From NCBI RefSeq assembly GCF_020166345.1, contig NZ_JAIUJS010000002.1, positions 1 to 64,000 on the forward strand: 64,000 nt of DNA, in the 5' to 3' direction. The translations under genes and the position numbers were made by a program. Shown in pieces: positions 23,464-34,897 of this stretch; position 1 is the stretch's first letter, and every line of letters starts with the position of its first letter. This stretch comes from Winogradskyella vincentii (GTDB lineage Bacteria > Bacteroidota > Bacteroidia > Flavobacteriales > Flavobacteriaceae). The notes beneath the pieces were generated by a model. It saw only the letters and a program-made list of their open reading frames with translations, searched no databases and was not told the DNA's origin.

Positions 23464-26400
23464 CTAATTAAGCTTAATTATCTTCAGTTCACTATTCACA
23501 ATTTTTATAATTAAATATTCACTGCCATTAATAGTAATACATTCTAAATTTTTTGCTTCTTCTTCAGAAACATTAATTAAAATTGCATTATTAAATTGCT
23601 CTTCTTTTCCCTTTTTGATTAGATAACCATTAGAAGCATCATAACGTATAGTTTCAACTTCTGCATCATAAATACCTCCAATCCCAATAACTTCTAGTGT
23701 GTTATCCCTATTCAAATATTCAAAATCTAATGTAGGGCCAAATTGTGTTTCATTAGGTAATGCTAAAAATTGAAAGTTACCATTACCTTTGTTTTCAATG
23801 TAATAGGATCTAAAAGTAGTTGCTTTCAAATGAAGAGCAGTTTCTATATTATCCTTACCATATACATCAATAATAGTTGAGCTTGAAAATTCACTATAAG
23901 TTCCAATTTTATCATTTAGAAATGGTGTTTGTTGCGATGAACATTCCTTACCTCTTACCGGAAATAATTCTCCTTTTTCTTCCTTACTCAATGCAATATC
24001 ATAGCTTTCATTATCGTCAAAATAATTAGCATATATGTGTAATGGTTTGTCCTGAGTTGGATGGAATTTATTATTCTCACCGTAGTTCCCTACAAAATAA
24101 TCTTCATCACCATCCTTATCATAATCTACAGCACTTATAGTTTGATACCACCCTGTTTTAGTATCTGATTCCTGATTGACCTTAGTAAAAATGCCTTCGT
24201 TATTGTTAAAAAAACTAACTGGCATCCATTCTCCAACTACAATTAAATCTTTATCACCATCATTATCGTAATCCGAAAAAACAGCATCATTTACCAAACC
24301 AAGATTTTTCAACTCATCTCCATTGTTGGATGTTACATTAATAAAATTGCCATTTATATTTTCTAATAAATAGGATTCTGGTGCTTCTGGGTATTTTCCA
24401 GGAACCACACGTCCACCAACAAATAAATCTAAATCACCATCATTATCAAAATCACCCGATGCAATAGCCTTGGTAACCGTAAGCATTATAGGTAGTTTTC
24501 CTTTTGAAAAATTTCCTTTACCGTCGTTTATATACAATCTATCCTGAAGTAAAAGACTATCTTCATCTTCACTATAATTACCTGAAACCACATATAAATC
24601 TAAGTCATTGTCATTATCAGCATCGAAGAATAATGCATTATTATCATTATAATTTTTATCCTTTTCAAACAAAGATTGATTGCTTTTATAAAACTTTCCC
24701 GAACTAGTTTGAACATACATTTCAGCTGAATAGCCCTTTGTATTTCCCACAAAAAAATCATCCAATCCATCATTATTAACATCTGCAACTACAAGTGCAT
24801 TATCTATTGTAGATTGCTTTTGCGGTAATAATAATTGCAGGTCATAATCGTTAAAATCAACTGACTTGTGTTTATAATCAATCCCTAATTCATCAGCTGA
24901 AACAGACTCAAACAATTTGACACTCTCCTTCTTTAAGTTGATGTTCTCCTCAGCATCAGAGTAATCAATAGTCAACTTTTGGTTAGCATCAATATTGGTT
25001 AGAGTTTGGGATTTGTTTTCTGACCAAGTGACTTTAATACTATCAATCTTTTGAAATGAACCTAGTCCGAAATTAACTTGATTGCTCACCGATGATTGAT
25101 AACCTCTACTTGTATATACCTCTTTAAGCTGATTATTGTCTTTTGTGAAAACTTCAATTCTAGCACCAATACCATTGATATTATGCTCTGGTCCTTTTAA
25201 GTCAATGTTTAGATAATTAGATTCAGAATTATTGCGGTAAATTGAGGCTTTATCAGATTGATTATTCAATACCAAGTCTAAATCACCATCATTATCCAAG
25301 TCAGCGTAAGATGCGCCATTAGAATTCAATTTTTCACCAAAACCATATTTTGAAGATGAATCCTTGAATGTGTAATCTTGATTATTTATAAACATGAAAT
25401 TGGCCAACTTAGCCGATGGGATTAATTCCTGAGCTTCTTTAAATCTTTCTTCTTTATTAGTGCTTAAATCTTTTTTAAGCATGGTTCTTCTAAAATCTTG
25501 ATTGGCGATATCCTTTTCAATCCCATTTGTAATAAACACATCATTATAACCATCATTATCAAAATCAGCAATTAAAGGCGCCCAGCTCCAATCGGTTTTT
25601 GCAATACCTGAGAATTGACCTATTTCACTATAGGTGCCATTTCCATTATTCAATTGCAACATATTAGACATGTATTGATGGTGGTAACCTTGTTTAACCA
25701 TGCGATTAAACTTCGCAATATCCATCGATGCCATATTTTCCTTACCTCGTTTTCTGTCTGAGGCTAGCATGTCTAATACTATAAGATCAGGCCTTAAGTC
25801 ATTATTAATATCTGCAAAATCAGAGCCCATACTATTATTAGAAATATGCTTAAAAGCGTCTAGAACTGAATTTGTAAATGTCCCATCTTGGTTATTGATG
25901 TATAAAAAGTCTGGCTCAAAAAAATCGTTAGCCACATAAATATCCGGCCATGTATCATTATTAAAATCGCCAATTGATGCGCTTAAACCCCAAGCCTTGT
26001 CAAACGAAATTCCTGCTGATTTTGTCACGTCCTTAAATTTGCCGTTGTTATTTTGATATAAGCGATCTATGTCATCTTTTGTTATACTCGGTAGATCCTG
26101 AGGTTGTAGATATAAATCTTTGTTAGTATCGAGACTATGATTAACAAGATACATATCTAAATCGCCATCCTTATCATAATCTAAAAAGTAAGCTTGGGTT
26201 GAAAAGCTATAATCCTTAAGGCCATATTTTACAGCTTCCTCTTTGAAAGTGTTATCCTTTTGGTTTATGTAGAGTTTATTTTGCCTTGCCTTTCTGTTTT
26301 TGATAGAGGCTGATTTACAAACATAAATGTCTAACCAACCATCGTTATTAATGTCTATCATGGTCACACCAGTAGACCAACCTTGATCATCCATTACATC

Positions 26401-26724
26401 AGCGTCTTCAGTGATATCCTCAAAAACGAAGTTGCCTTTATTAAGGTATAATCTATTGGACTGCTGATTTGACGTGAAGTAAATATCCTCTAATCCATCA
26501 TTATTTATATCTCCAACTGCAACACCTCCTCCATTATAGATATAACTGTAATTTAAGAAATTGAAATCTACTGTTTCTTCAATACTATTTATGAAATCTA
26601 TATTGGAATGACTCGATGGGATATTTGTAAATAATGTAGTGGTTCCGTCATTATATGGCACATTATCTTTACCACAACTAAAGAATACACATAATAGTAA
26701 AATAAGAAACTTGTTGTACTTCAT
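23464..26724 (-). CDS. FG-GAP/VCBS-repeat lipoprotein with ASPIC/UnbV domain
   Basis: The 1086 residues begin with a lipoprotein signal (LLLCVFFSCGKD, lipobox Cys near 17). Many FG-GAP/VCBS-type repeats follow, carrying calcium-loop motifs such as DINNDGLEDIYF, DYDKDGDLDMYL, DFNNDTWPDIYV, DLDNDGDLDLVL and DYDNDGDKDLIVV; these build a seven-bladed beta-propeller, probably two. An ASPIC/UnbV segment lies near residues 510-600 (VNFGLGSFQKIDSIKVTW). Such proteins often accompany SusC/SusD polysaccharide loci, but none is adjacent here. The gene appears monocistronic, exported and outer-membrane bound, with a role in binding or recognition rather than an identified enzyme activity. Confidence 0.9.
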   Translation of the reverse strand: MKYNKFLILLLCVFFSCGKDNVPYNDGTTTLFTNIPSSHSNIDFINSIEETVDFNFLNYSYIYNGGGVAVGDINNDGLEDIYFTSNQQSNRLYLNKGNFVFEDITEDADVMDDQGWSTGVTMIDINNDGWLDIYVCKSASIKNRKARQNKLYINQKDNTFKEEAVKYGLKDYSFSTQAYFLDYDKDGDLDMYLVNHSLDTNKDLYLQPQDLPSITKDDIDRLYQNNNGKFKDVTKSAGISFDKAWGLSASIGDFNNDTWPDIYVANDFFEPDFLYINNQDGTFTNSVLDAFKHISNNSMGSDFADINNDLRPDLIVLDMLASDRKRGKENMASMDIAKFNRMVKQGYHHQYMSNMLQLNNGNGTYSEIGQFSGIAKTDWSWAPLIADFDNDGYNDVFITNGIEKDIANQDFRRTMLKKDLSTNKEERFKEAQELIPSAKLANFMFINNQDYTFKDSSSKYGFGEKLNSNGASYADLDNDGDLDLVLNNQSDKASIYRNNSESNYLNIDLKGPEHNINGIGARIEVFTKDNNQLKEVYTSRGYQSSVSNQVNFGLGSFQKIDSIKVTWSENKSQTLTNIDANQKLTIDYSDAEENINLKKESVKLFESVSADELGIDYKHKSVDFNDYDLQLLLPQKQSTIDNALVVADVNNDGLDDFFVGNTKGYSAEMYVQTSSGKFYKSNQSLFEKDKNYNDNNALFFDADNDNDLDLYVVSGNYSEDEDSLLLQDRLYINDGKGNFSKGKLPIMLTVTKAIASGDFDNDGDLDLFVGGRVVPGKYPEAPESYLLENINGNFINVTSNNGDELKNLGLVNDAVFSDYDNDGDKDLIVVGEWMPVSFFNNNEGIFTKVNQESDTKTGWYQTISAVDYDKDGDEDYFVGNYGENNKFHPTQDKPLHIYANYFDDNESYDIALSKEEKGELFPVRGKECSSQQTPFLNDKIGTYSEFSSSTIIDVYGKDNIETALHLKATTFRSYYIENKGNGNFQFLALPNETQFGPTLDFEYLNRDNTLEVIGIGGIYDAEVETIRYDASNGYLIKKGKEEQFNNAILINVSEEEAKNLECITINGSEYLIIKIVNSELKIIKLN

Positions 26725-26785: not shown

Positions 26786-27760
26786 TCAAATTTTACCTAA
26801 GATCTTATCCATTACCCAAGCTGTATGAGTTGCAGTTTCTCCATTTGAAGGGTGTTGAAAATCTGAATTTAAATGTTTTACCATATTTTCAACATGATAC
26901 TGTTGAATATGCTTAGGATTCTCAATAACTAAATTCTCATGATGATTTTGCACAGTAATTCCTATAGGAACTTCTCCAAAAATTGAAAACGAAAGTTCGC
27001 CTTCGCTTCCAATAATTCTAACTTTGTCCTCTCTTTGATAAGTTCCAAAACTCCACATACCAGTTCCAACTACACCAGACTCATGCTCCCATGATCCTGA
27101 AATGATATCCTTTGCACTATATCGGTTCTGTTGGTTTCCTGATACACCGTTGGCACTTTTAAAATCACCAAACAAGTAAGCAAAAAGGTCTAAACCATGA
27201 CTTGCTAAATCGTCAAAATAGCCTGCTGGCGCAATTTTGACATCAGTTCGCCAATTATAGGTATCCGATTTATCCAAATCACTTGCGGTTCGACTTAAAT
27301 ACCAACTCACATGTCTAACATCTCCAATTACATGATCTTCTAAAAGGGATTTTACCTTATTAAATCGTGGTAACGACCTGCGATAATAGGCCACAAATAA
27401 TGGTAAGCTTTGTTTTTCAAAAGTATTTTGTATCTCTTGACACTCTGCATAACTGGGTGCCATAGGTTTTTCAATACAGCATATTTTGCTCGCTTCTGCT
27501 ACTTTCAATGCATAATAATGATGAGTATCTGGCGGTGTAGCAATATAAACGGCATCAACTTCGGGATCTTTAATCAATTTGTCAGCGTCATTATAATAAC
27601 GCGGTACATCATGTCGTTTTGCATAATCTTTAGCCAGTTCTAGGTTTCTTCGCATTACAGCTACCAACTCAAAACCATCAGTCATTTTGTATGCTGGTCC
27701 GCTTTTTATTTCGGTAACATCACCACAGCCAATAATTCCCCATCTTATGGTTTGCCTCAT
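26786..27760 (-). CDS. Gfo/Idh/MocA family oxidoreductase
   Basis: The 324-residue NAD(P)-dependent dehydrogenase has the N-terminal Rossmann motif WGIIGCGDVTEIKSGPA, the family signature EKPMAPSYAE near residue 97, and a C-terminal alpha/beta domain with WRTDVKIAPAGYFDDLASHGLDL, where the conserved His acts in catalysis. The substrate, probably a sugar or inositol derivative, cannot be read from sequence. The gene starts one base after the stop of the LexA-like repressor (TAGAATG junction), so it is co-transcribed with it, a surprising partner for a DNA-damage regulator. Confidence 0.93.
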   Translation of the reverse strand: MRQTIRWGIIGCGDVTEIKSGPAYKMTDGFELVAVMRRNLELAKDYAKRHDVPRYYNDADKLIKDPEVDAVYIATPPDTHHYYALKVAEASKICCIEKPMAPSYAECQEIQNTFEKQSLPLFVAYYRRSLPRFNKVKSLLEDHVIGDVRHVSWYLSRTASDLDKSDTYNWRTDVKIAPAGYFDDLASHGLDLFAYLFGDFKSANGVSGNQQNRYSAKDIISGSWEHESGVVGTGMWSFGTYQREDKVRIIGSEGELSFSIFGEVPIGITVQNHHENLVIENPKHIQQYHVENMVKHLNSDFQHPSNGETATHTAWVMDKILGKI

Positions 27761-27761
27761 T

Positions 27762-28529
27762 CTACAGTTGTTTTACAGCTTCCAGCTCTACTTTAAGTTC
27801 TTGAAACATCGTCATGATACTACTAAGTTTTAATTCTTTTTCATCGTATTCTTGCGTATTGATACAACAGGTAAATTCCCAAAGCTCTAATATACTTTCT
27901 TTAGAAACTAGGTAAGGTTTGTAGGCCTTATTATCAGAACTTAATAATAAGTCATTACTATCATCATCTGTAAGATATATACGTTTATAAACTAGACCAT
28001 CGTTCTTAGTTAAAACGATATACGTTTTTCCGTTTCTAATATCCTCAATATCTTCAACAAACTTCGCGACTACAAATGCACCATCCTTAACTGGCAACAT
28101 AGAATCACCCTTAATCGGAAATGCTCTATGTGTTCCTGTAGGTAGAAAGGGTAGCTTTATCTTTTGAAGTTGCTCTATATATTCGGGATCATCATAACCA
28201 GACAAATAGCCTGCCGAAGCTTTTGCAGGTATAATCTCAATCAAATCCTCATTGTCTTCGTTAACCGTTACAGGAAATAACACACGCTTATTCCCTACTT
28301 CTATAAACGAAGTATCCTTTGCTTTACGTAAATCTTTACGCACCAAAATATCTATAGGAATATTGAAATAATTAGACAGGTCTATCAAACGTTCTATAGG
28401 TGGTTCGCTTCTTCCCTCTTCATAAGACCCAACTACAGAACGCGTCCATCCCAAATCATCTGCAAAGCGCTCTTGAGATAACTTCTTTAAAGACCTGAGG
28501 TGCTTTATGTTAGCTTGTATAGGTTTCAA
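27762..28529 (-). CDS. LexA-like repressor: XRE-type HTH plus S24 autoprotease domain
   Basis: In this 255-residue protein, residues 5-60 form an XRE helix-turn-helix (LKKLSQERFADDLGWTRSVV). From about residue 95 there is an S24 peptidase domain as in LexA and phage repressors: scissile Ala106-Gly107 (KASAGY), catalytic Ser143 (IKGDSMLP) and Lys182 (VYKRIY). The Ser-Lys spacing of 39 is close to that in LexA. The start is TTG at 28529, needed for a complete HTH. It diverges from the polymerase operon at 28606 across 76 bp with repeated motifs. The inference is that it represses that operon and itself, and is cleaved on RecA activation during DNA damage. Confidence 0.9.
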   Translation of the reverse strand: MKPIQANIKHLRSLKKLSQERFADDLGWTRSVVGSYEEGRSEPPIERLIDLSNYFNIPIDILVRKDLRKAKDTSFIEVGNKRVLFPVTVNEDNEDLIEIIPAKASAGYLSGYDDPEYIEQLQKIKLPFLPTGTHRAFPIKGDSMLPVKDGAFVVAKFVEDIEDIRNGKTYIVLTKNDGLVYKRIYLTDDDSNDLLLSSDNKAYKPYLVSKESILELWEFTCCINTQEYDEKELKLSSIMTMFQELKVELEAVKQL

Positions 28530-28552
28530 CTAAATTAATTTTAACAGTATTT

Positions 28553-28597
28553 ACTACAAATATAAGCAATAAAAACTACATATAGTAGCTAATTTTG
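28553..28597. promoter_or_regulatory. Divergent SOS-like promoter with repeated CTAC operator motifs
   Basis: The minus-strand -10 box TATATTTG (28557-28564) serves the repressor and the plus-strand -10 box TAATTTTG (28590-28597) serves the polymerase gene. ACTACAAATATA (28553-28564) overlaps the first box. ACTACATATAGTAG (28575-28588, palindrome CTAC-N5-GTAG) lies immediately before the second. The copies are spaced 22 bp. This fits one repressor controlling both directions. The polymerase ATG at 28606 is so close to its -10 box that the mRNA could be almost leaderless. Confidence 0.6.
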
Positions 28598-28605
28598 TTA
28601 GTCCC

Positions 28606-31600
28606 ATGTATTTAAACTGTCATACATATTACAGCCTTCGTTACGGCACCATAAAACCTGAGCAACTGCTTGCCATTGCTTCAGAAAATAGTGTGCAGAC
28701 TTTAGCGCTTACAGATATTAATACGACCTCAGCTTGTTTAGATATCGTTCGTCTATCCAAAAAATACAAGGTGAAACCTGTTCTTGGTGTAGATTTTAGA
28801 AACAAAGCCCATCAAGAGTTTATTTTAATCGCAAAAAACAATGAGGGTTTTCAAAATATAAATGATTATCTGTCTAAATTTCTTCATAATCACGATTTAA
28901 AAATTCCTGAACGACCAGAACATGTCTTAGGCGATTGTTTTGTGATTTACCCATACCAAAAAGGGAAAGATTTCAACTTGAAACCAAATGAATTTTTAGG
29001 CATTGCGCCTAAAGACCTCAACCAATTGAAATTCTCTAAATGGAATAAACACAGAGAGAAATTAGTAGTTCTAAAAACCGTTTCTTTTCAAAATAAAAAA
29101 GGGTTCAATACGCATCGTTTATTACGCGCTATTGACAATAACACCCTATTAAGTAAGCTTCCCAAATCCGAAGAAGGCTATGAGGATGATAAAATGCTAC
29201 CATATGACAAATTATGTGGAATGTATTCGGAATTCCCAAGTCTTATTAGCAATACAGAGAACTTATTGGATGATTGTTCCATTACATTCGATTTTGAAAA
29301 TCCAATACCGAAAAATCAGCGATTCCTCACAGAAAATGCCGATTCTGATTATCAACTTTTAGAAAAACTAACCTATAAAGGTATTCCCTACCGATATGGG
29401 AATAATGTAGATTCTAAAATATACAACCGTATAAAAAAAGAGCTGGACATTATAAAGCAAAAAGGCTTTGTGTCTTACTTTTTAATCAATTGGAAGATTT
29501 TAGAGTACGCACGTAGCAAGGATTACTACTACGTTGGTCGTGGTAGTGGCGCTAATAGTATTATCGCTTATCTGCTTCGTATTACAGATGTAGACCCTAT
29601 TGAGCTCGACTTGTACTTTGAACGCTTCATTAATCTCTTTAGACAAAATCCACCCGACTTTGATATTGATTTCTCGTGGAAAGACAGAGATGATATTACC
29701 AAATTTATCTTCAACAGTTTTAAGCATACGGCACTTATTACGGTATATAACACCTTTAAATTTAGAGCTTCTGTTAGAGAACTCGGGAAAGTATTTGGAT
29801 TGCCAAAGTCTGAAATGGATATGCTAACAAGAGGAAGGTTTAATATTAAAAAACTGGATAGACTATCATTACTTGTACTTAAATACAGTCAATATATTGA
29901 AGGGTTTCCTAACTATCTTGGTATACACGCAGGTGGTATTTTAATTTCAGAAAAACCAATCCACTACTATGGTGCTACGTTTATGCCACCAAAAGGGTTT
30001 CCTACCACACAATTTGATATGGTTGTGGCAGAAGATATTGGCTTGTACAAGTTTGATATTTTAAGTCAGCGTGGCTTGGGTAAAATTAAAGATACCGTAG
30101 AAATTATTGACAAAAACTACAGTGATCAACCACCTGTAGATATTCACGATATTAAACGTTTTAAAGAAGACGAACGCATAAAATACTTACTTAAAAATGC
30201 CAAAGCTATTGGTTGCTTTTATGTAGAATCACCTGCGATGCGTATGCTTTTAAAAAAGCTTCGTGTAGACGACTACCTTGGTTTAGTGGCCGCAAGTTCT
30301 GTTATTAGGCCTGGTGTTTCAAAATCCGGTATGATGCGCCAGTACATTTTACGTTGTCGTCATCCAGAAAAAAGAAAGGATGCGCCTACTGTACTCTTAG
30401 ATATTATGCCAGAAACCTATGGTGTTATGGTATATCAAGAAGACGTGATTAAAGTAGCGCACTATTTTGGCGGACTCACACTTGGTGAAGCTGATATGTT
30501 ACGTCGTGGTATGTCTGGTAAGTTTAGGTCTAGAGCAGAATTTTTAAAAGTAAAACAACAGTTTTTTGATAACTGTAAAAACGATGGTAAATCTCTAGAA
30601 CTTACTGCAGAAATATGGCGACAGATTGAAAGTTTCGCTGGTTATGCTTTTGCCAAAGGACACTCAGCATCTTACGCTGTAGAAAGTTATCAAAGTCTAT
30701 TCTTAAAAGCCTATTATCCGCTAGAATACATGACAGCTACCATTAATAATTTTGGTGGTTTTTACAGTACAGAACTCTATGTTCATGAAGCCAGAATGCA
30801 TAATGGCAGTATTGAATCGCCATGTATTAACAACTCTTACAATCAAGCTATTATTAGAGGTAATACCATTTATCTAGGGTTTATGTTTTTACAATCTTTT
30901 GAGTCTAGAACTACAGCGCGTATCCTTAGAGAGCGTGAACAAAACGGCACCTTTAAATCGCTCGACGATTTTATAGAACGGGTTCCTATTTCAATAGAGC
31001 AAATTAGCATCTTGATAAAGATCAACGCGTTTCGATTTACAAACATCAACAAGCGCGAATTGCTTTGGGAAGCACACCTAAAAATTAGCAAGACCGTAAT
31101 ACAAGAACATGTGGTTACCTTGTTTAAGACAAGACGAATCAACTACAATACACCAAAATTACCAAGTACAGCATTAGAAAATGCGTTTGATGAATTTGAA
31201 CTATTAGGTTTTCCGTTGTGCAATCCATTTCACTTATTAGAAGTACCATCTACAAGTAAGTTACGAGCTAAACATTTAAAACAGCTCGAAGGTAAATATG
31301 CAAAAATTGAAGGCTATCTGGTCACTACTAAAAATACAAGCACATCTAATGGTAAACGCATGTATTTCGGTACATTTCTAGACAGAGATGGTGATTTTAT
31401 AGACACAGTTCATTTTCCACCAATTGCCAGTAAATATCCTTTTAGAGGGAAGGGTGTTTATGAAATTACTGGTAAAGTGATGATAGAATTTGACTGTGTC
31501 TCTATTGAGGTGTCAAAGTTTGAACGTTTGGCTATTATTGAAGATCCACGCTATTCAATAAATTCATCTAACCCAACATTTCAACGAAAGAAAAGTTTTA

Positions 31601-31629
31601 AAGATTTAAAAGCACAATATGAACGCTAA
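28606..31629 (+). CDS. DnaE-type DNA polymerase III alpha subunit, probable error-prone (DnaE2-like) polymerase
   Basis: The 1007 residues make a C-family polymerase shorter than a replicative DnaE (about 1150-1450 in this phylum). The PHP domain opens MYLNCHTYYSLRYGT: the usual HxH metal motif reads NCH, so PHP metal binding looks impaired. The polymerase aspartates are intact: D351 and D353 in PDFDIDF and D484 in KFDILSQRGL. Other landmarks are GRGSGANSIIAYLL and FAKGHSASYAVESYQ. A C-terminal OB-fold (GYLVTTKNT to FGTFLDRDGD) is retained. It overlaps the Y-family polymerase gene by 11 bp, and lies under the LexA-like repressor. Established DnaE2 biology and this setting suggest damage-induced translesion synthesis. 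Confidence 0.92.
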   Translation: MYLNCHTYYSLRYGTIKPEQLLAIASENSVQTLALTDINTTSACLDIVRLSKKYKVKPVLGVDFRNKAHQEFILIAKNNEGFQNINDYLSKFLHNHDLKIPERPEHVLGDCFVIYPYQKGKDFNLKPNEFLGIAPKDLNQLKFSKWNKHREKLVVLKTVSFQNKKGFNTHRLLRAIDNNTLLSKLPKSEEGYEDDKMLPYDKLCGMYSEFPSLISNTENLLDDCSITFDFENPIPKNQRFLTENADSDYQLLEKLTYKGIPYRYGNNVDSKIYNRIKKELDIIKQKGFVSYFLINWKILEYARSKDYYYVGRGSGANSIIAYLLRITDVDPIELDLYFERFINLFRQNPPDFDIDFSWKDRDDITKFIFNSFKHTALITVYNTFKFRASVRELGKVFGLPKSEMDMLTRGRFNIKKLDRLSLLVLKYSQYIEGFPNYLGIHAGGILISEKPIHYYGATFMPPKGFPTTQFDMVVAEDIGLYKFDILSQRGLGKIKDTVEIIDKNYSDQPPVDIHDIKRFKEDERIKYLLKNAKAIGCFYVESPAMRMLLKKLRVDDYLGLVAASSVIRPGVSKSGMMRQYILRCRHPEKRKDAPTVLLDIMPETYGVMVYQEDVIKVAHYFGGLTLGEADMLRRGMSGKFRSRAEFLKVKQQFFDNCKNDGKSLELTAEIWRQIESFAGYAFAKGHSASYAVESYQSLFLKAYYPLEYMTATINNFGGFYSTELYVHEARMHNGSIESPCINNSYNQAIIRGNTIYLGFMFLQSFESRTTARILREREQNGTFKSLDDFIERVPISIEQISILIKINAFRFTNINKRELLWEAHLKISKTVIQEHVVTLFKTRRINYNTPKLPSTALENAFDEFELLGFPLCNPFHLLEVPSTSKLRAKHLKQLEGKYAKIEGYLVTTKNTSTSNGKRMYFGTFLDRDGDFIDTVHFPPIASKYPFRGKGVYEITGKVMIEFDCVSIEVSKFERLAIIEDPRYSINSSNPTFQRKKSFKDLKAQYER

Positions 31630-32836
31630 TCGCTCTATAGTACATATGGATTTAGACACCTTTTTTGTGTCTTGCGAGCGCTTATTAGATAGTAGCCTAA
31701 ACGGAAAACCCGTGCTCATTGGTGGCACCAGCGATAGAGGTGTTGTGGCATCTTGCAGTTACGAAGCACGCAAATTTGGCGTACACTCTGCTATGCCAAT
31801 GCGTATGGCAAAACAATTATGCCCAGAAGCTATTATACTTAGAGGCAACTCTGGTATTTACACTAAGTTTTCACAGAATGTTACTGATGTTATAAAAGAA
31901 AGTGTGCCACTTTACGAAAAAACATCTGTAGATGAATTTTATATAGACCTTACCGGAATGGACAAATTCTTTGGTTGCCACAAACTAGCTTCAGAGTTGC
32001 GACAGCGCATTATTAAAGAAACAGGATTGCCTATTTCTTTTGGCTTATCAATGAATAAAACCGTTTCAAAAATTGCTACAGGCGAAGCCAAACCTAATAA
32101 CGAGATTAGAATTCTTTCAGGTACCGAAAAACCCTTCTTGGCGCCACTGTCAGTAAAAAAAATCCCAATGGTTGGTAATGTCACTTACAAAGCTTTATGT
32201 GATTTGGGCGTTAAACGCATTAAGACCGTACAAGATATGCCGATGGAACTCATGCATAAAGTACTAGGTAAAAACGGCTTATCCATTTGGAAAAAAGCCA
32301 ATGGCATAGACAATAGTCCTGTAATACAATATCATGAGCGCAAATCTATTTCTACTGAGCGCACTTTTGGGCAAGACACCACCAATGTTCATAAACTAAA
32401 AGGATTGGTTATTGCTATGGCAGAAAATTTAGCATATCAACTAAGACGTGGCAATAAGTTAACCGCTTGTGTGACATTTAAGATTCGATATTCCGATTTT
32501 CAGACCTACACACAGCAAAAGCGTATACCATATAGCGCTATGGACCATACTATTATACCTGTTGTTTTAGATCTGTTTAATAAACTATACAATCGCAGGT
32601 TATTGGTCCGTTTAATAGGTGTGCGTTTTAGTCATTTGGTAGAAGGTGGCCATCAAATCAACTTATTTGAAGACAACGAGATACAACTCAACCTAGCACA
32701 AGCCATAGACAAAATGCGGGAACGTTATGGTGATAGAGCTGTTATCAGCGCAGCAGGAATGGAAGCAAAAACCATTAGTCGTTGGAATCCCTTTACTGGT
32801 GAACCACCACCTCTATTGGCAAATAGGCATCAATAA
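31619..32836 (+). CDS. dinB: Y-family DNA polymerase (DinB / Pol IV type)
   Basis: The 405 residues keep the catalytic acidic residues D11 (HMDLDTFF) and D105-E106 (TSVDEFYID), so it is active, unlike ImuB proteins that have lost them. HhH and little-finger regions follow. QINLF at 346-350 is a good beta-clamp-binding motif. Its ATG lies inside the end of the DnaE-type gene (11-bp overlap, stop at 31627-31629), giving translational coupling and a fixed ratio of the two polymerases. Confidence 0.94.
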   Translation: MNANRSIVHMDLDTFFVSCERLLDSSLNGKPVLIGGTSDRGVVASCSYEARKFGVHSAMPMRMAKQLCPEAIILRGNSGIYTKFSQNVTDVIKESVPLYEKTSVDEFYIDLTGMDKFFGCHKLASELRQRIIKETGLPISFGLSMNKTVSKIATGEAKPNNEIRILSGTEKPFLAPLSVKKIPMVGNVTYKALCDLGVKRIKTVQDMPMELMHKVLGKNGLSIWKKANGIDNSPVIQYHERKSISTERTFGQDTTNVHKLKGLVIAMAENLAYQLRRGNKLTACVTFKIRYSDFQTYTQQKRIPYSAMDHTIIPVVLDLFNKLYNRRLLVRLIGVRFSHLVEGGHQINLFEDNEIQLNLAQAIDKMRERYGDRAVISAAGMEAKTISRWNPFTGEPPPLLANRHQ

Positions 32837-32861
32837 TTAGGAAAATCACTATCTTAGAATC

Positions 32862-33593
32862 ATGTGTTACTCTACAGCATTACGGAAAGAACGAGAAAAA
32901 ATTGAAAAAGAGCTTCGCAATCAAATAAAGGTAAAGTTTGATGCCAACTCAACCTACAAACCATATTTCCACCTCAACGGATTTACACATGGGAATCTTC
33001 AAATCATAAAAATGGATGAACCCAATACCATCTATGATGCTAGCTGGGGAATAATACCAGATTGGGCAATACATGATCCTGAAGCATTCAGAAAAAAAAG
33101 CAACACCTTAAATGCACGCTCAGAATCTATTTTTGATAAGGCTTCCTTTAGAAATAGTGCAGAAGATAAACGTTGTTTAATATTAGCAGATGGTTTTTAC
33201 GAACCTCATCATGAAAATGGTAAGGCCATTCCCTACTTCTGCTACCAACCCTCAACTGAAAATCCCGACGGAGATCTGTTTCTTTTTGCAGGACTTTATA
33301 ACGAAATTGATGACAATACGTTAAGCACAACTATACTCACAACCGATGCTAATGATTTTTTTATGGAAGTCCATAACAAAGGCAAACGCATGCCTTTGGT
33401 TTTAGATCCGCATTATTTTGAAGACTGGTTAGACGATGGATTGAGCATCCCAGAAGTCAATGAACTCATGGCAGTTGGTATGACAAATAAATCATTTACT
33501 GCACATCCTGTAAGCACTGATTTATATAAAAGAAATGTAGATACTAACAAACCTTATATTATCCAACCTGTACAAAAGGATACACTTTTTTAA
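32862..33593 (+). CDS. SRAP (SOS response-associated peptidase) family protein, YedK/HMCES type
   Basis: The 243 residues begin MCYS: Cys2 is exposed by Met removal and makes the thiazolidine cross-link with abasic sites. Other active-site residues are Asn84 (NTLNARSES), Glu114 (ADGFYEPHH) and His171 (EVHNKGKRMPLVL). The family protects abasic sites in single-stranded DNA. It lies 25 bp after dinB and almost abuts the convergent HTH gene, so it is the last gene of the LexA-like cassette. Damage-induced abasic sites and two translesion polymerases form a consistent functional unit. Confidence 0.93.
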   Translation: MCYSTALRKEREKIEKELRNQIKVKFDANSTYKPYFHLNGFTHGNLQIIKMDEPNTIYDASWGIIPDWAIHDPEAFRKKSNTLNARSESIFDKASFRNSAEDKRCLILADGFYEPHHENGKAIPYFCYQPSTENPDGDLFLFAGLYNEIDDNTLSTTILTTDANDFFMEVHNKGKRMPLVLDPHYFEDWLDDGLSIPEVNELMAVGMTNKSFTAHPVSTDLYKRNVDTNKPYIIQPVQKDTLF

Positions 33594-33800
33594 TTAATCT
33601 TCAACATATTCTAATATATCACTTGGCTGACAATCTAAGGCCTTACAGATAGCCTCCAATGTAGAAAACCGAATTGCTCTTGCCTTACCAGATTTTAGAA
33701 TGGACATATTTGCAGTAGTAATACCAATAAACTCAGCAAGTTCTTTGCTTTTCATGCCACGCTGAACAAGCATTTTATCTAAATTGACTACTATTGGCAT
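33594..33800 (-). CDS. Small Cro/XRE-type HTH transcriptional regulator
   Basis: The 68-residue HTH-only protein (MLVQRGMKSKELAEFIGI, TTANMSILKSGKARAIRF, ICKALDCQPSDILEY) is of the YozG type that often pairs with DUF2975 membrane proteins. It starts two bases after the end of the second DUF2975 gene, so the trio is co-transcribed. The palindromes at 34850-34897 before the operon are its likely autoregulatory targets. Confidence 0.9.
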   Translation of the reverse strand: MPIVVNLDKMLVQRGMKSKELAEFIGITTANMSILKSGKARAIRFSTLEAICKALDCQPSDILEYVED

Positions 33801-33802
33801 GA

Positions 33803-34327
33803 CTATATGGTTAATTCGTTATCCTCCTTTGCTTGTTTTCCTTTTTCAAATATTTCAGCCAAAATATAAAAGGCCAGGCCTGCAGGAATTAAAAAAGTGA
33901 ATTCTTCCTTGAGTTCATTAATAAAGTTAAAGGTAGATTCTCCTATTGCAGCTAAAAGAAATCTAAGTACCAATATACCTATGGTGTAACTAATGAAAAT
34001 ATTTCCAATCTTTCTAAAGTACTTGATGTTCTTATCACTGAAGTATTTCCCGGTCTCAACTTCTTTTAGTATTGATAAAAAGTAACTAAAACCATAAATT
34101 AAATAGCCTCTCCAAAAGAAAATTCCAGCAGTTATAGCATAGTAACTCCATTCAATGGCATTCTTTGAGGTAAACCAAGATTCATTTCTGTCTGCAGTTT
34201 TTGCCCAATTCTGAAAATTCTCGAATTGATTAAAATCAAACTCTCGCATATCATTTAGCAAAACAGAAACTGCAACTAGCAAAACTGCCCAAGTTATTAT
34301 AGTTAAAATGTTGATATTATCTTTCAT
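33803..34327 (-). CDS. DUF2975 family membrane protein (copy 2)
   Basis: The 174 residues have four predicted membrane helices (ILTIITWAVLLVAVSVLL near 6-23, then near 64-84, 111-131 and 143-160). The end, GKQAKEDNELTI, closely matches the end of copy 1 (AKHAKEENELTV). The family has no established biochemical role; a membrane partner for the adjacent HTH is suggested by the constant pairing of the two families. It lies 2 bp from each neighbour. Confidence 0.85.
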   Translation of the reverse strand: MKDNINILTIITWAVLLVAVSVLLNDMREFDFNQFENFQNWAKTADRNESWFTSKNAIEWSYYAITAGIFFWRGYLIYGFSYFLSILKEVETGKYFSDKNIKYFRKIGNIFISYTIGILVLRFLLAAIGESTFNFINELKEEFTFLIPAGLAFYILAEIFEKGKQAKEDNELTI

Positions 34328-34329
34328 AA

Positions 34330-34839
34330 TTAAACTGTTAATTCGTTTTCTTCCTTGGCATGTTTTGCTACCTTAAATACTTCACTTAGGACCATAAAAA
34401 ACAACCCTAAAACTGTTAATACTAGATATGGTGTAATACCTAAATTAATTATAAACTCACCTTTAAATAATATTCTGGATGCAAATGCTATTAAAGTACC
34501 GCCTATACCAATACCGCAAAGCATGTAACCTATTTTGTGGAAATTATTTATAACATCAATATGAAAAGGTTTTACCTGTTGAAAGTATCGTAGGGTTTTT
34601 CTAAAAACAAATAAACAATAGACTGATATTGATGTAATAATAATAAACAACAATCCAAAAAATTGTTTAATATAATTAGGTATCGTTTTGTCAAAAGAGA
34701 TTTCATCGAAAACAATATCTAAAGCTTCTGGTTCAACAAACATATAGACCAGAAAAAATCCCATTAAAAAAAGCAGTGGAATACAAGTGATAATCCAAAT
34801 AAAGTCAACTAAACTTTTAAGAATAATTAATTTTCTCAT
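34330..34839 (-). CDS. DUF2975 family membrane protein (copy 1)
   Basis: The ATG at 34839 (MRKLIILKSLVDF) gives 169 residues and places the start downstream of the palindromic operators; an upstream in-frame codon at 34869 would lie within operator 1 and the -10 box. Four membrane helices are visible, with the same plan and C-terminal signature (EENELTV) as copy 2. It is first in the unit DUF2975-DUF2975-HTH. A pair of tandem paralogues suggests a heterodimer. Confidence 0.83.
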   Translation of the reverse strand: MRKLIILKSLVDFIWIITCIPLLFLMGFFLVYMFVEPEALDIVFDEISFDKTIPNYIKQFFGLLFIIITSISVYCLFVFRKTLRYFQQVKPFHIDVINNFHKIGYMLCGIGIGGTLIAFASRILFKGEFIINLGITPYLVLTVLGLFFMVLSEVFKVAKHAKEENELTV

Positions 34840-34849
34840 AGTTAATAAA

Positions 34850-34897
34850 TTATTGTTTAACAATAACAAATATAAAATAATTATTGTAAAACAATAA
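34850..34897. promoter_or_regulatory. Two TTATTGT-N3-ACAATAA palindromes bracketing the DUF2975 operon promoter
   Basis: Operator 1 (34850-34866) and operator 2 (34881-34897) are both perfect 7-bp inverted repeats around three bases, with centres 31 bp (three helical turns) apart. Between them, read on the minus strand, lies TATATTTG (34867-34874), a TAnnTTTG -10 box. Operator 2 covers the -33 region and operator 1 the transcription start. This is a textbook arrangement for repression by a dimeric HTH protein, probably the one encoded at 33594. Confidence 0.8.

What the first reader, a model, noticed from the sequence alone, without database searches (positions are those of the whole stretch)
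26786..33593. Self-contained SOS-like mutagenesis cassette: LexA-like repressor, DnaE-type polymerase, Y-family polymerase and SRAP protein
An HTH-S24 repressor with an intact cleavage site (A106-G107) and Ser143/Lys182 dyad diverges from overlapping genes for two specialised polymerases and an abasic-site-binding SRAP protein. Established families (LexA, DnaE2, Pol IV, HMCES) make a coherent inference: damage-induced translesion synthesis with abasic-site protection. Unlike the well-studied imuA-imuB-dnaE2 cassette, it has no imuA and its Y polymerase keeps its catalytic residues. The repressor gene also co-transcribes a Gfo/Idh/MocA oxidoreductase, which has no known SOS role.
Basis: partly seen in the sequence, partly recalled or inferred. 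Interest (0 to 1): 0.75.

Follow-up and report, generated by a model that had tools for sequence, protein, structure and literature searches.

The report
Damage-response gene cassette in Winogradskyella
A marine bacterium carries a repressor of the self-cutting kind next to two emergency DNA-copying enzymes and a DNA-patch protein; every part is of a known kind, but the repressor belongs to a branch with its own DNA docking sites and appears to control one further repair gene elsewhere.

Summary
The five genes are real and correctly placed. The genome is a Winogradskyella close to strain KYW1333. The repressor is a Bacteroidetes non-canonical LexA (phage-type HTH plus S24 peptidase; Ala106-Gly107, Ser143, Lys182 invariant in 21 of 21 rows). 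The polymerases match the published "DnaE2B-PolY-RecA" mutasome (PMC6511836, PMC12926913), so the missing ImuA and active Y-polymerase are not new. SRAP closes the operon in 9 of 80 named loci; the oxidoreductase abuts the repressor in 9 of 80, all Winogradskyella.

New here: (1) the repressor's clade is separate from those carrying the two published motifs, and its promoters bear a conserved pair, CTAC-N5-TAAG and CTAC-N5-GTAG, 22 bp apart, at back-to-back promoters; (2) the cassette is not self-contained. Of 37 exact CTAC-N5-GTAG in the genome two lie upstream of genes: the cassette and a SplB-like radical-SAM gene. Among 17 Winogradskyella genomes with that gene the site (0-1 mismatch) occurs in 9 of 9 with the repressor, 0 of 8 without; (3) DnaE2 is absent wherever the repressor is, and in a genome where the two lie 40 kb apart both keep the operator. 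Induction and binding are inferred. Known system, modest new variant.

The parts
27762..28529 (-). S24 repressor (non-canonical LexA), HTH_3 + Peptidase_S24; cleavage site A106-G107, dyad S143/K182
28554..28566 (.). operator O1, CTACAAATATAAG (CTAC-N5-TAAG), overlapping the repressor's -7-like element
28557..28564 (-). -7-like element TATATTTG (TAnnTTTG) of the repressor promoter; promoter consensus recalled
28576..28588 (.). operator O2, CTACATATAGTAG (CTAC-N5-GTAG), 22 bp from O1
28590..28597 (+). -7-like element TAATTTTG (TAnnTTTG) of the polymerase operon; promoter consensus recalled
28606..31629 (+). DnaE2-type C-family polymerase, 1007 aa, catalytic D353/D355/D484
31619..32836 (+). Y-family polymerase (DinB/PolY) with catalytic residues, 405 aa, D11/D105/E106
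32654..32668 (+). QINLF (residues 346-350), likely sliding-clamp motif (motif recalled); Q-x-x-[LM]-F in 89 of 89 full-length rows
32693..32755 (+). RecA N-terminus-like motif LAQAIDKMRERYGDRAVISAA (residues 359-379)
32862..33593 (+). SRAP (YedK/HMCES family), C2/N84/E114/H171; lineage-variable member
26786..27760 (-). Gfo/Idh/MocA oxidoreductase, 1 nt after the repressor; lineage-specific neighbour

Best explanation
It is a damage-inducible mutasome cassette. In undamaged cells the non-canonical LexA binds O1 and O2, two dyads 22 bp apart (two helix turns, so on one face of the helix and possibly bound cooperatively), and covers or abuts the -7 elements of two back-to-back promoters, silencing itself and the polymerase operon. 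RecA filaments on damaged DNA trigger self-cleavage at A106-G107 by the S143/K182 dyad and the operon is released. The PolY docks on RecA through its RecA-N-terminus-like tail and on the clamp through QINLF, and hands over to or works with the DnaE2 to copy past lesions; SRAP, where present, shields abasic sites. The same repressor also holds down a SplB-like radical-SAM gene through one CTAC-N5-GTAG site. Shown here from sequence: gene content, catalytic residues, conserved operator pair, co-occurrence of repressor with site and with DnaE2. Inferred: binding, cooperativity, RecA-triggered cleavage, damage induction, the protein contacts and the enzymology.
For: Invariant cleavage and dyad residues. 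O1+O2 (at most 1 mismatch in each) at 22 bp spacing in 74 of 113 unique upstream regions (98 of 113 if O2 may have 2), against 1 of 113 at all other spacings 14-31 together and 4e-5 in shuffles. Both -7 elements in register in 73 of 113. Of 37 genomic CTAC-N5-GTAG two lie upstream of genes: the cassette and a radical-SAM gene of the SplB/COG1533 kind, a published SOS target (PMC8565304). That site occurs in 9 of 9 repressor-bearing and 0 of 8 repressor-less Winogradskyella with the gene (Fisher 4.1e-5 ignoring kinship). Cassette DnaE2 in 15 of 16 genomes with the repressor and 0 of 9 without. In genome G159 repressor and DnaE2 lie 40 kb apart; the repressor keeps O1 exact and O2 with one mismatch, and the DnaE2 upstream keeps an exact O2 with a two-mismatch O1 22 bp before it, as expected of action in trans. 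RecA-like tail in the cassette PolY but not in the genome's second DinB. Published relatives of the repressor bind such dyads and their regulons are mitomycin C-inducible (PMC8565304).
Against: No expression or binding data for this clade. CTAC-N5-GTAG is not enriched genome-wide (37 against 40 for the reversed pattern). recA and the second dinB have no site with 0-1 mismatch in the 394 and 200 bp upstream. The relocated exonuclease gene has no exact site in 11 repressor-bearing genomes, only scattered one-mismatch matches in 2. With exact radical-SAM sites only, 7 of 9 against 0 of 8 (Fisher 0.0023). Two of the eight repressor-less genomes are under 90% complete (G171 78%, G168 89%). On the tree only 2 well-supported (4 in the best tree) independent changes back the co-occurrence, too few for a significant sign test. 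No clear -33 element was seen for the polymerase promoter. The motif was derived from the same regions that were then counted.
Confidence: 0.82

Rival explanations
1. The repressor is a cassette-only regulator and the radical-SAM site is coincidence or inherited noise; the operon is a private mutasome with no wider regulon.
For: Only 2 of 37 exact sites are upstream of genes and there is no genome-wide enrichment; recA, the second dinB and the relocated exonuclease gene lack exact sites.
Against: Arms of the radical-SAM site are kept while the spacer varies, in 9 of 9 repressor-bearing genomes and 0 of 8 without; an exact match is expected in about 0.1% and a match with up to one mismatch in about 4% of such regions.
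Confidence: 0.2
2. The repressor is not cleaved in a RecA-dependent way but answers another signal (for example a ligand or a redox cue linked to the neighbouring oxidoreductase), so the cassette is not an SOS unit.
For: The oxidoreductase follows the repressor after 1 nt in the window and sits beside it in 9 of 80 named loci; in this genome a second Gfo/Idh/MocA gene also diverges from the radical-SAM gene; no damage data for this clade.
Against: Cleavage site and Ser-Lys dyad invariant in 21 of 21 rows; the oxidoreductase is beside the repressor in 0 of 44 close loci of the family sample, and the second one is beside the radical-SAM gene in this genome only, 0 of 16 congeners; published relatives are mitomycin C-inducible (PMC8565304).
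Confidence: 0.07
3. The true operator is the published CTAA-N5-TTAG dyad at 28589-28601, so this is simply the published CTAA-type regulon.
For: An exact CTAATTTTGTTAG lies at 28589-28601.
Against: Exact at this place only in the window, L113, L117, L118, L127 and L190 among the unique regions listed; it overlaps the -7-like TAATTTTG; 127 copies genome-wide against 151 for the reversed pattern; the repressor lies outside the clade of regulators whose own promoters carry CTAA-N5-TTAG.
Confidence: 0.08

Closest known systems
Non-canonical LexA of Bacteroidetes (Sanchez-Osuna et al. 2021, PMC8565304; parts 2-6 of 9 read)
   Same: HTH_3 + S24, Ala-Gly and Ser-Lys kept, dyad with 5-bp spacer in its own promoter; in Elizabethkingia anophelis a repressor (site TTAC-AAATT-GTAA) faces an error-prone polymerase gene and both are mitomycin C-inducible; SplB-like, GIY-YIG exonuclease and SRAP genes are among predicted targets
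   Different: [quoted passage not shown] operator CTAC-N5-GTAG plus CTAC-N5-TAAG in tandem; very small predicted regulon. The paper's supplement (table S10) was not readable here, so this motif may be listed there
DnaE2B-PolY-RecA module of Bacteroidetes (PMC6511836, passages; PMC12926913, passages and section 20)
   Same: active Y-polymerase with RecA-like motif beside an active DnaE2, no ImuA or ImuB in the operon
   Different: In the passages read, the repressor, operators and SRAP of the Bacteroidetes form are not described; two gene orders are found here
imuA-imuB-dnaE2 mutagenesis cassette
   Same: damage-type regulator, Y-family protein and DnaE2 together
   Different: no ImuA in the operon; the Y-family protein keeps its catalytic residues in 91 of 91 rows
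SRAP/YedK/HMCES in SOS operons (Aravind et al. 2013, PMC3765255, passages)
   Same: SRAP with DinB, LexA and in some cases a DnaE paralog
   Different: here at the operon end in only 9 of 80 named loci and 6 of 44 sampled loci

Membership tests
Bacteroidetes non-canonical LexA | phage-type HTH (PF01381), no LexA winged helix | tested here: met
   HTH_3 2.3e-12; no LexA DNA-binding domain among the Pfam hits
Bacteroidetes non-canonical LexA | S24 domain with Ala-Gly site and Ser-Lys dyad | tested here: met
   Peptidase_S24 6.9e-8; A106, G107, S143, K182 in 21 of 21 rows
Bacteroidetes non-canonical LexA | own promoter carries a published motif (GGA-N5-TCC or CTAA-N5-TTAG) | tested here: inconclusive
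   CTAA-N5-TTAG is exact in the window but poorly conserved; the conserved dyad is the variant CTAC-N5-GTAG; separate clade in the tree
Bacteroidetes non-canonical LexA | damage-induced derepression and sequence-specific binding | not testable with these tools
   needs RT-qPCR, EMSA and a cleavage assay
canonical LexA | winged HTH LexA_DNA_bind domain | tested here: not met
   no such domain among the Pfam hits
DnaE2B-PolY-RecA mutasome | catalytically intact C-family polymerase | tested here: met
   D353, D355, D484 in 93 of 93 rows; aligned to E. coli Pol III alpha
DnaE2B-PolY-RecA mutasome | Y-polymerase with intact catalytic residues and a RecA-N-terminus-like motif | tested here: met
   D11, D105, E106 in 91 of 91 rows; motif in 89 of 89 full-length rows; 9 of 1000 shuffles reach its score against the genome's own RecA
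DnaE2B-PolY-RecA mutasome | DnaE falls in the DnaE2B branch | not tested
   no tree with the published DnaE2 groups was made; NCBIfam scores it higher with DnaE models than with the error-prone DnaE2 model, all of these below their cut-offs except the superfamily model TIGR00594
DnaE2B-PolY-RecA mutasome | no imuA or imuB in the genome | tested here: inconclusive
   two Y-family genes; the second shows DMDAF and LSLDEAYLD, so neither looks like a dead ImuB; one RecA-family match; no dedicated ImuA search
ImuA-ImuB-DnaE2 | catalytically dead ImuB with ImuB-C | tested here: not met
   catalytic residues kept; Pfam shows only IMS-type domains
SRAP/HMCES | Cys2 and the Asn/Glu/His active-site set (residue roles recalled) | tested here: met
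   C2 in 15 of 18 (3 rows gapped there); N84, E114, H171 in 18 of 18
Gfo/Idh/MocA oxidoreductase | Rossmann + C-terminal domains | tested here: met
   PF01408, PF22725, PF02894

The most novel reading that the evidence does not exclude
A third class of Bacteroidetes SOS repressor: a clade with its own tandem operator (CTAC-N5-TAAG + CTAC-N5-GTAG, 22 bp apart, on two back-to-back promoters) that in this Winogradskyella is the only non-canonical LexA homologue found and controls a minimal SOS regulon, a DnaE2B-PolY mutasome plus a SplB-like radical-SAM repair gene, which is gained and lost together with its remote target site.
Probability: 0.5. Interest if true: 0.45.

Novelty: new variant of a known kind. 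Interest (0 to 1): 0.36.

Why it matters
It joins two separately published pieces, the non-canonical LexA and the ImuA-free DnaE2-PolY mutasome, into one locus with a defined operator, and gives a natural experiment: congeners that lack the repressor also lack the cassette DnaE2 and the operator at a distant repair gene. That makes the working of inducible mutagenesis in marine Flavobacteriaceae directly testable.

Tried and rejected
CTAA-N5-TTAG as the operator: rejected, poorly conserved and not enriched. recA as a target: no site with 0-1 mismatch in 394 bp upstream. Relocated DnaQ/GIY-YIG exonuclease as a target: no exact site in 11 repressor-bearing genomes; one-mismatch matches in 2 of them at scattered places. 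Second DinB as part of the module: it lacks the RecA-like tail and has no site in 200 bp upstream. A link of Gfo/Idh/MocA genes to the regulon through the gene that diverges from the radical-SAM gene: that neighbour was found in this genome only. A count of S24 genes by Pfam PF00717 in the genome gave zero although the repressor itself scores above cut-off as a protein, so that search is insensitive and I rely on the protein search (one homologue). Anti-phage reading: PADLOC matches are weak and to the HTH part only. Literature: searches listed no paper with both Winogradskyella and LexA (0 papers) and I saw none on a CTAC-N5-GTAG class; this covers only the held open-access library and not the supplement of PMC8565304, whose main text does not hold the string GTAG at a word start.

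Caveats on counts: loci overlap (several contigs are in both); one search kept 80 of at least 572 confirmed loci, best first, so the named set leans to Winogradskyella and its kin; one search used 113 unique of 125 upstream regions with repressor identity of at least 59%, lower-identity ones dropped, and its -7 counts allow up to 4 mismatches in O2; protein rows are length-filtered and de-duplicated (91 of 101 Y-polymerase, 93 of 106 DnaE, 18 of 19 SRAP rows). SRAP was counted only within 600 bp of the operon end; L182, L184 and L187 have one elsewhere in the flanks. L229 is the weakest 'inside an ORF' call (site 12 nt after a possible start); ORFs there are mechanical.
Full report
What is there. 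The window is part of contig C22 of a 3.29 Mb genome. The nearest named record is Winogradskyella sp. KYW1333, with an identical repressor and 96% identical DnaE, so the source is a close Winogradskyella, not that strain itself. The dnaE-type and Y-polymerase genes overlap by 11 nt; SRAP follows 25 nt on. The repressor has an HTH_3 domain and an S24 domain; A106-G107, S143 and K182 are invariant in 21 of 21 aligned rows, the window and 20 relatives. DnaE D353/D355/D484 are kept in 93 of 93 and Y-polymerase D11/D105/E106 in 91 of 91 rows. SRAP keeps N84/E114/H171 in 18 of 18 and C2 in 15 of 18, the other three being gapped there.

How the locus varies. In 80 named loci with up to 9 kb flanks, both polymerases diverge from the repressor in 66 (DnaE first in 62, Y-polymerase first in 4); in the 44 close loci of the family sample, 32 (21 and 11). 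The 'not both' loci include contig ends. SRAP closes the operon in 9 of 80 and in 6 of 44. The oxidoreductase abuts the repressor in 9 of 80, all titled Winogradskyella, and in 0 of 44. A commoner gene beside the repressor is a DnaQ/GIY-YIG exonuclease (20 of 80; 20 of the 60 loci; domains). So the core is repressor, DnaE2 and PolY; SRAP and the oxidoreductase are lineage extras.

The operator. Between repressor and polymerases lies a block conserved across the family: [GA]CTAC-N5-TAAG-CAA, then CTAC-N5-GTAG, then TAATTTTG. In the window these are 28554-28566 (O1), 28576-28588 (O2) and 28590-28597. O1 contains, on the minus strand, TATATTTG (28557-28564). Both octamers fit the Bacteroidetes -7 element TAnnTTTG (recalled, from no call). 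O1 and O2, each with at most one mismatch, are exactly 22 bp apart in 74 of 113 unique regions, in 98 of 113 if O2 may have two; all other spacings from 14 to 31 give one region in total, and shuffled regions 4e-5. The reverse -7 is in register in 104 of 113 and both in 73 of 113. Two helix turns put both dyads on one face, which suggests, but does not show, cooperative binding. The published CTAA-N5-TTAG does occur at 28589-28601 but is exact there in only six of the unique regions listed and overlaps the -7 element.

A regulon beyond the cassette. CTAC-N5-GTAG occurs 37 times in the genome (reversed control 40). All 37 were placed by mechanical ORF calls: 34 inside ORFs, one between convergent ORF ends, and two upstream of genes, namely the cassette and, 36 bp before its start, a PA0069-family radical-SAM gene. 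That gene is of the SplB/COG1533 kind (my assignment from the family name), which PMC8565304 lists as a Bacteroidetes SOS target. In 17 Winogradskyella genomes with the gene, the site is exact in 7 and has one mismatch in 2; these nine are exactly those with the cassette repressor, while the eight without a repressor orthologue (two of them have only distant homologues; two are under 90% complete) have none. Fisher's test gives 4.1e-5, or 0.0023 for exact sites only, both ignoring kinship. On the radical-SAM tree the repressor's presence changes four times at least, two on well-supported branches; in those two independent pairs the site goes the same way, too few for a sign test. The cassette DnaE2 is in 15 of the 16 genomes with the repressor and in 0 of the 9 without.

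A split cassette. In genome G159 the repressor and the DnaE2 gene lie about 40 kb apart. Upstream of the repressor are CTACAAAAATAAG and, 22 bp on, CTACATATGATAG (one mismatch); about 180 bp upstream of the DnaE2 gene are an exact CTACATATAGTAG and, 22 bp before it, the two-mismatch CTACAAATAAGAG. Each half has thus kept a copy of the pair, as expected if the repressor acts in trans. This is one genome.

Against a larger regulon: recA and the second dinB have no site with 0-1 mismatch, and the exonuclease gene, whose close orthologues in Winogradskyella lie away from the cassette, has no exact site in 11 repressor-bearing genomes, with scattered one-mismatch matches in 2. A second Gfo/Idh/MocA gene diverges from the radical-SAM gene in this genome, but was found beside it in none of the 16 congeners, so it gives no ground for an SOS role of such enzymes.

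Place among known systems. A tree of 37 repressors separates the window's clade (24 rows, support 94/89) from regulators whose own promoters carry GGA-N5-TCC (5 rows) and from those that carry CTAA-N5-TTAG (3 rows), the two published motifs, each of these groups at 100/100 (the types were assigned here from the promoters, not from the published proteins). PMC8565304 (parts 2-6 read) reports extra palindromes in paralogues and an E. anophelis repressor facing an error-prone polymerase, so the layout is not new; its supplement could not be read. The polymerase pair matches the Bacteroidetes PolY2-DnaE2 system of PMC6511836 (passages) and the DnaE2B-PolY-RecA module of PMC12926913 (passages and section 20); its RecA-like tail is present here (LAQAIDKMRERYGDRAVISAA against LKLTLDKLDKAYGKGTVMKMS of the genome's RecA; 9 of 1000 shuffles reach the score). 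The SRAP link is in PMC3765255 (passages).

Verdict. A real, widely conserved, damage-response-type cassette whose parts and logic are already described. No expression, binding or cleavage has been shown for this clade.

Noticed in passing
window 33594-34869: A small HTH_26 regulator gene followed by two DUF2975 membrane-protein genes on the minus strand; relatives of some of these recur downstream of the cassette in many Winogradskyella loci.
   Followed up: partly
window 23464-26724: A 1086-aa FG-GAP/ASPIC-UnbV repeat protein downstream of the oxidoreductase; among the 80 named loci it was seen beside the cassette only in L112 (85%; matches of at least 150 bits), and L086 of the family sample has a 44% one in its flank.
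   Followed up: no
L202 1835-3013 (genome C22, about 100.7-101.9 kb): A second Gfo/Idh/MocA gene diverges from the operator-bearing radical-SAM gene in this genome, but in none of the 16 congeners looked at.
   Followed up: yes
L128, L129, L137, L164, L167, L168 and genome G164: Repressor orthologues with no cassette polymerase in the flanks searched, or no cassette DnaE in the genome (G164); several keep the O1/O2 promoter. What these solitary repressors control is unknown; in G159 the DnaE2 gene has simply moved 40 kb away.
   Followed up: partly
L096-L098: Distant repressors (40-46% identity) form a sister group whose promoters lack the CTAC operator; in L097 one still faces DinB-DnaE, so yet another operator type is likely.
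   Followed up: no
L087, L188: Repressor loci where only a short stretch of the DnaE gene matches (118 and 89 residues), suggesting decayed cassettes.
   Followed up: no
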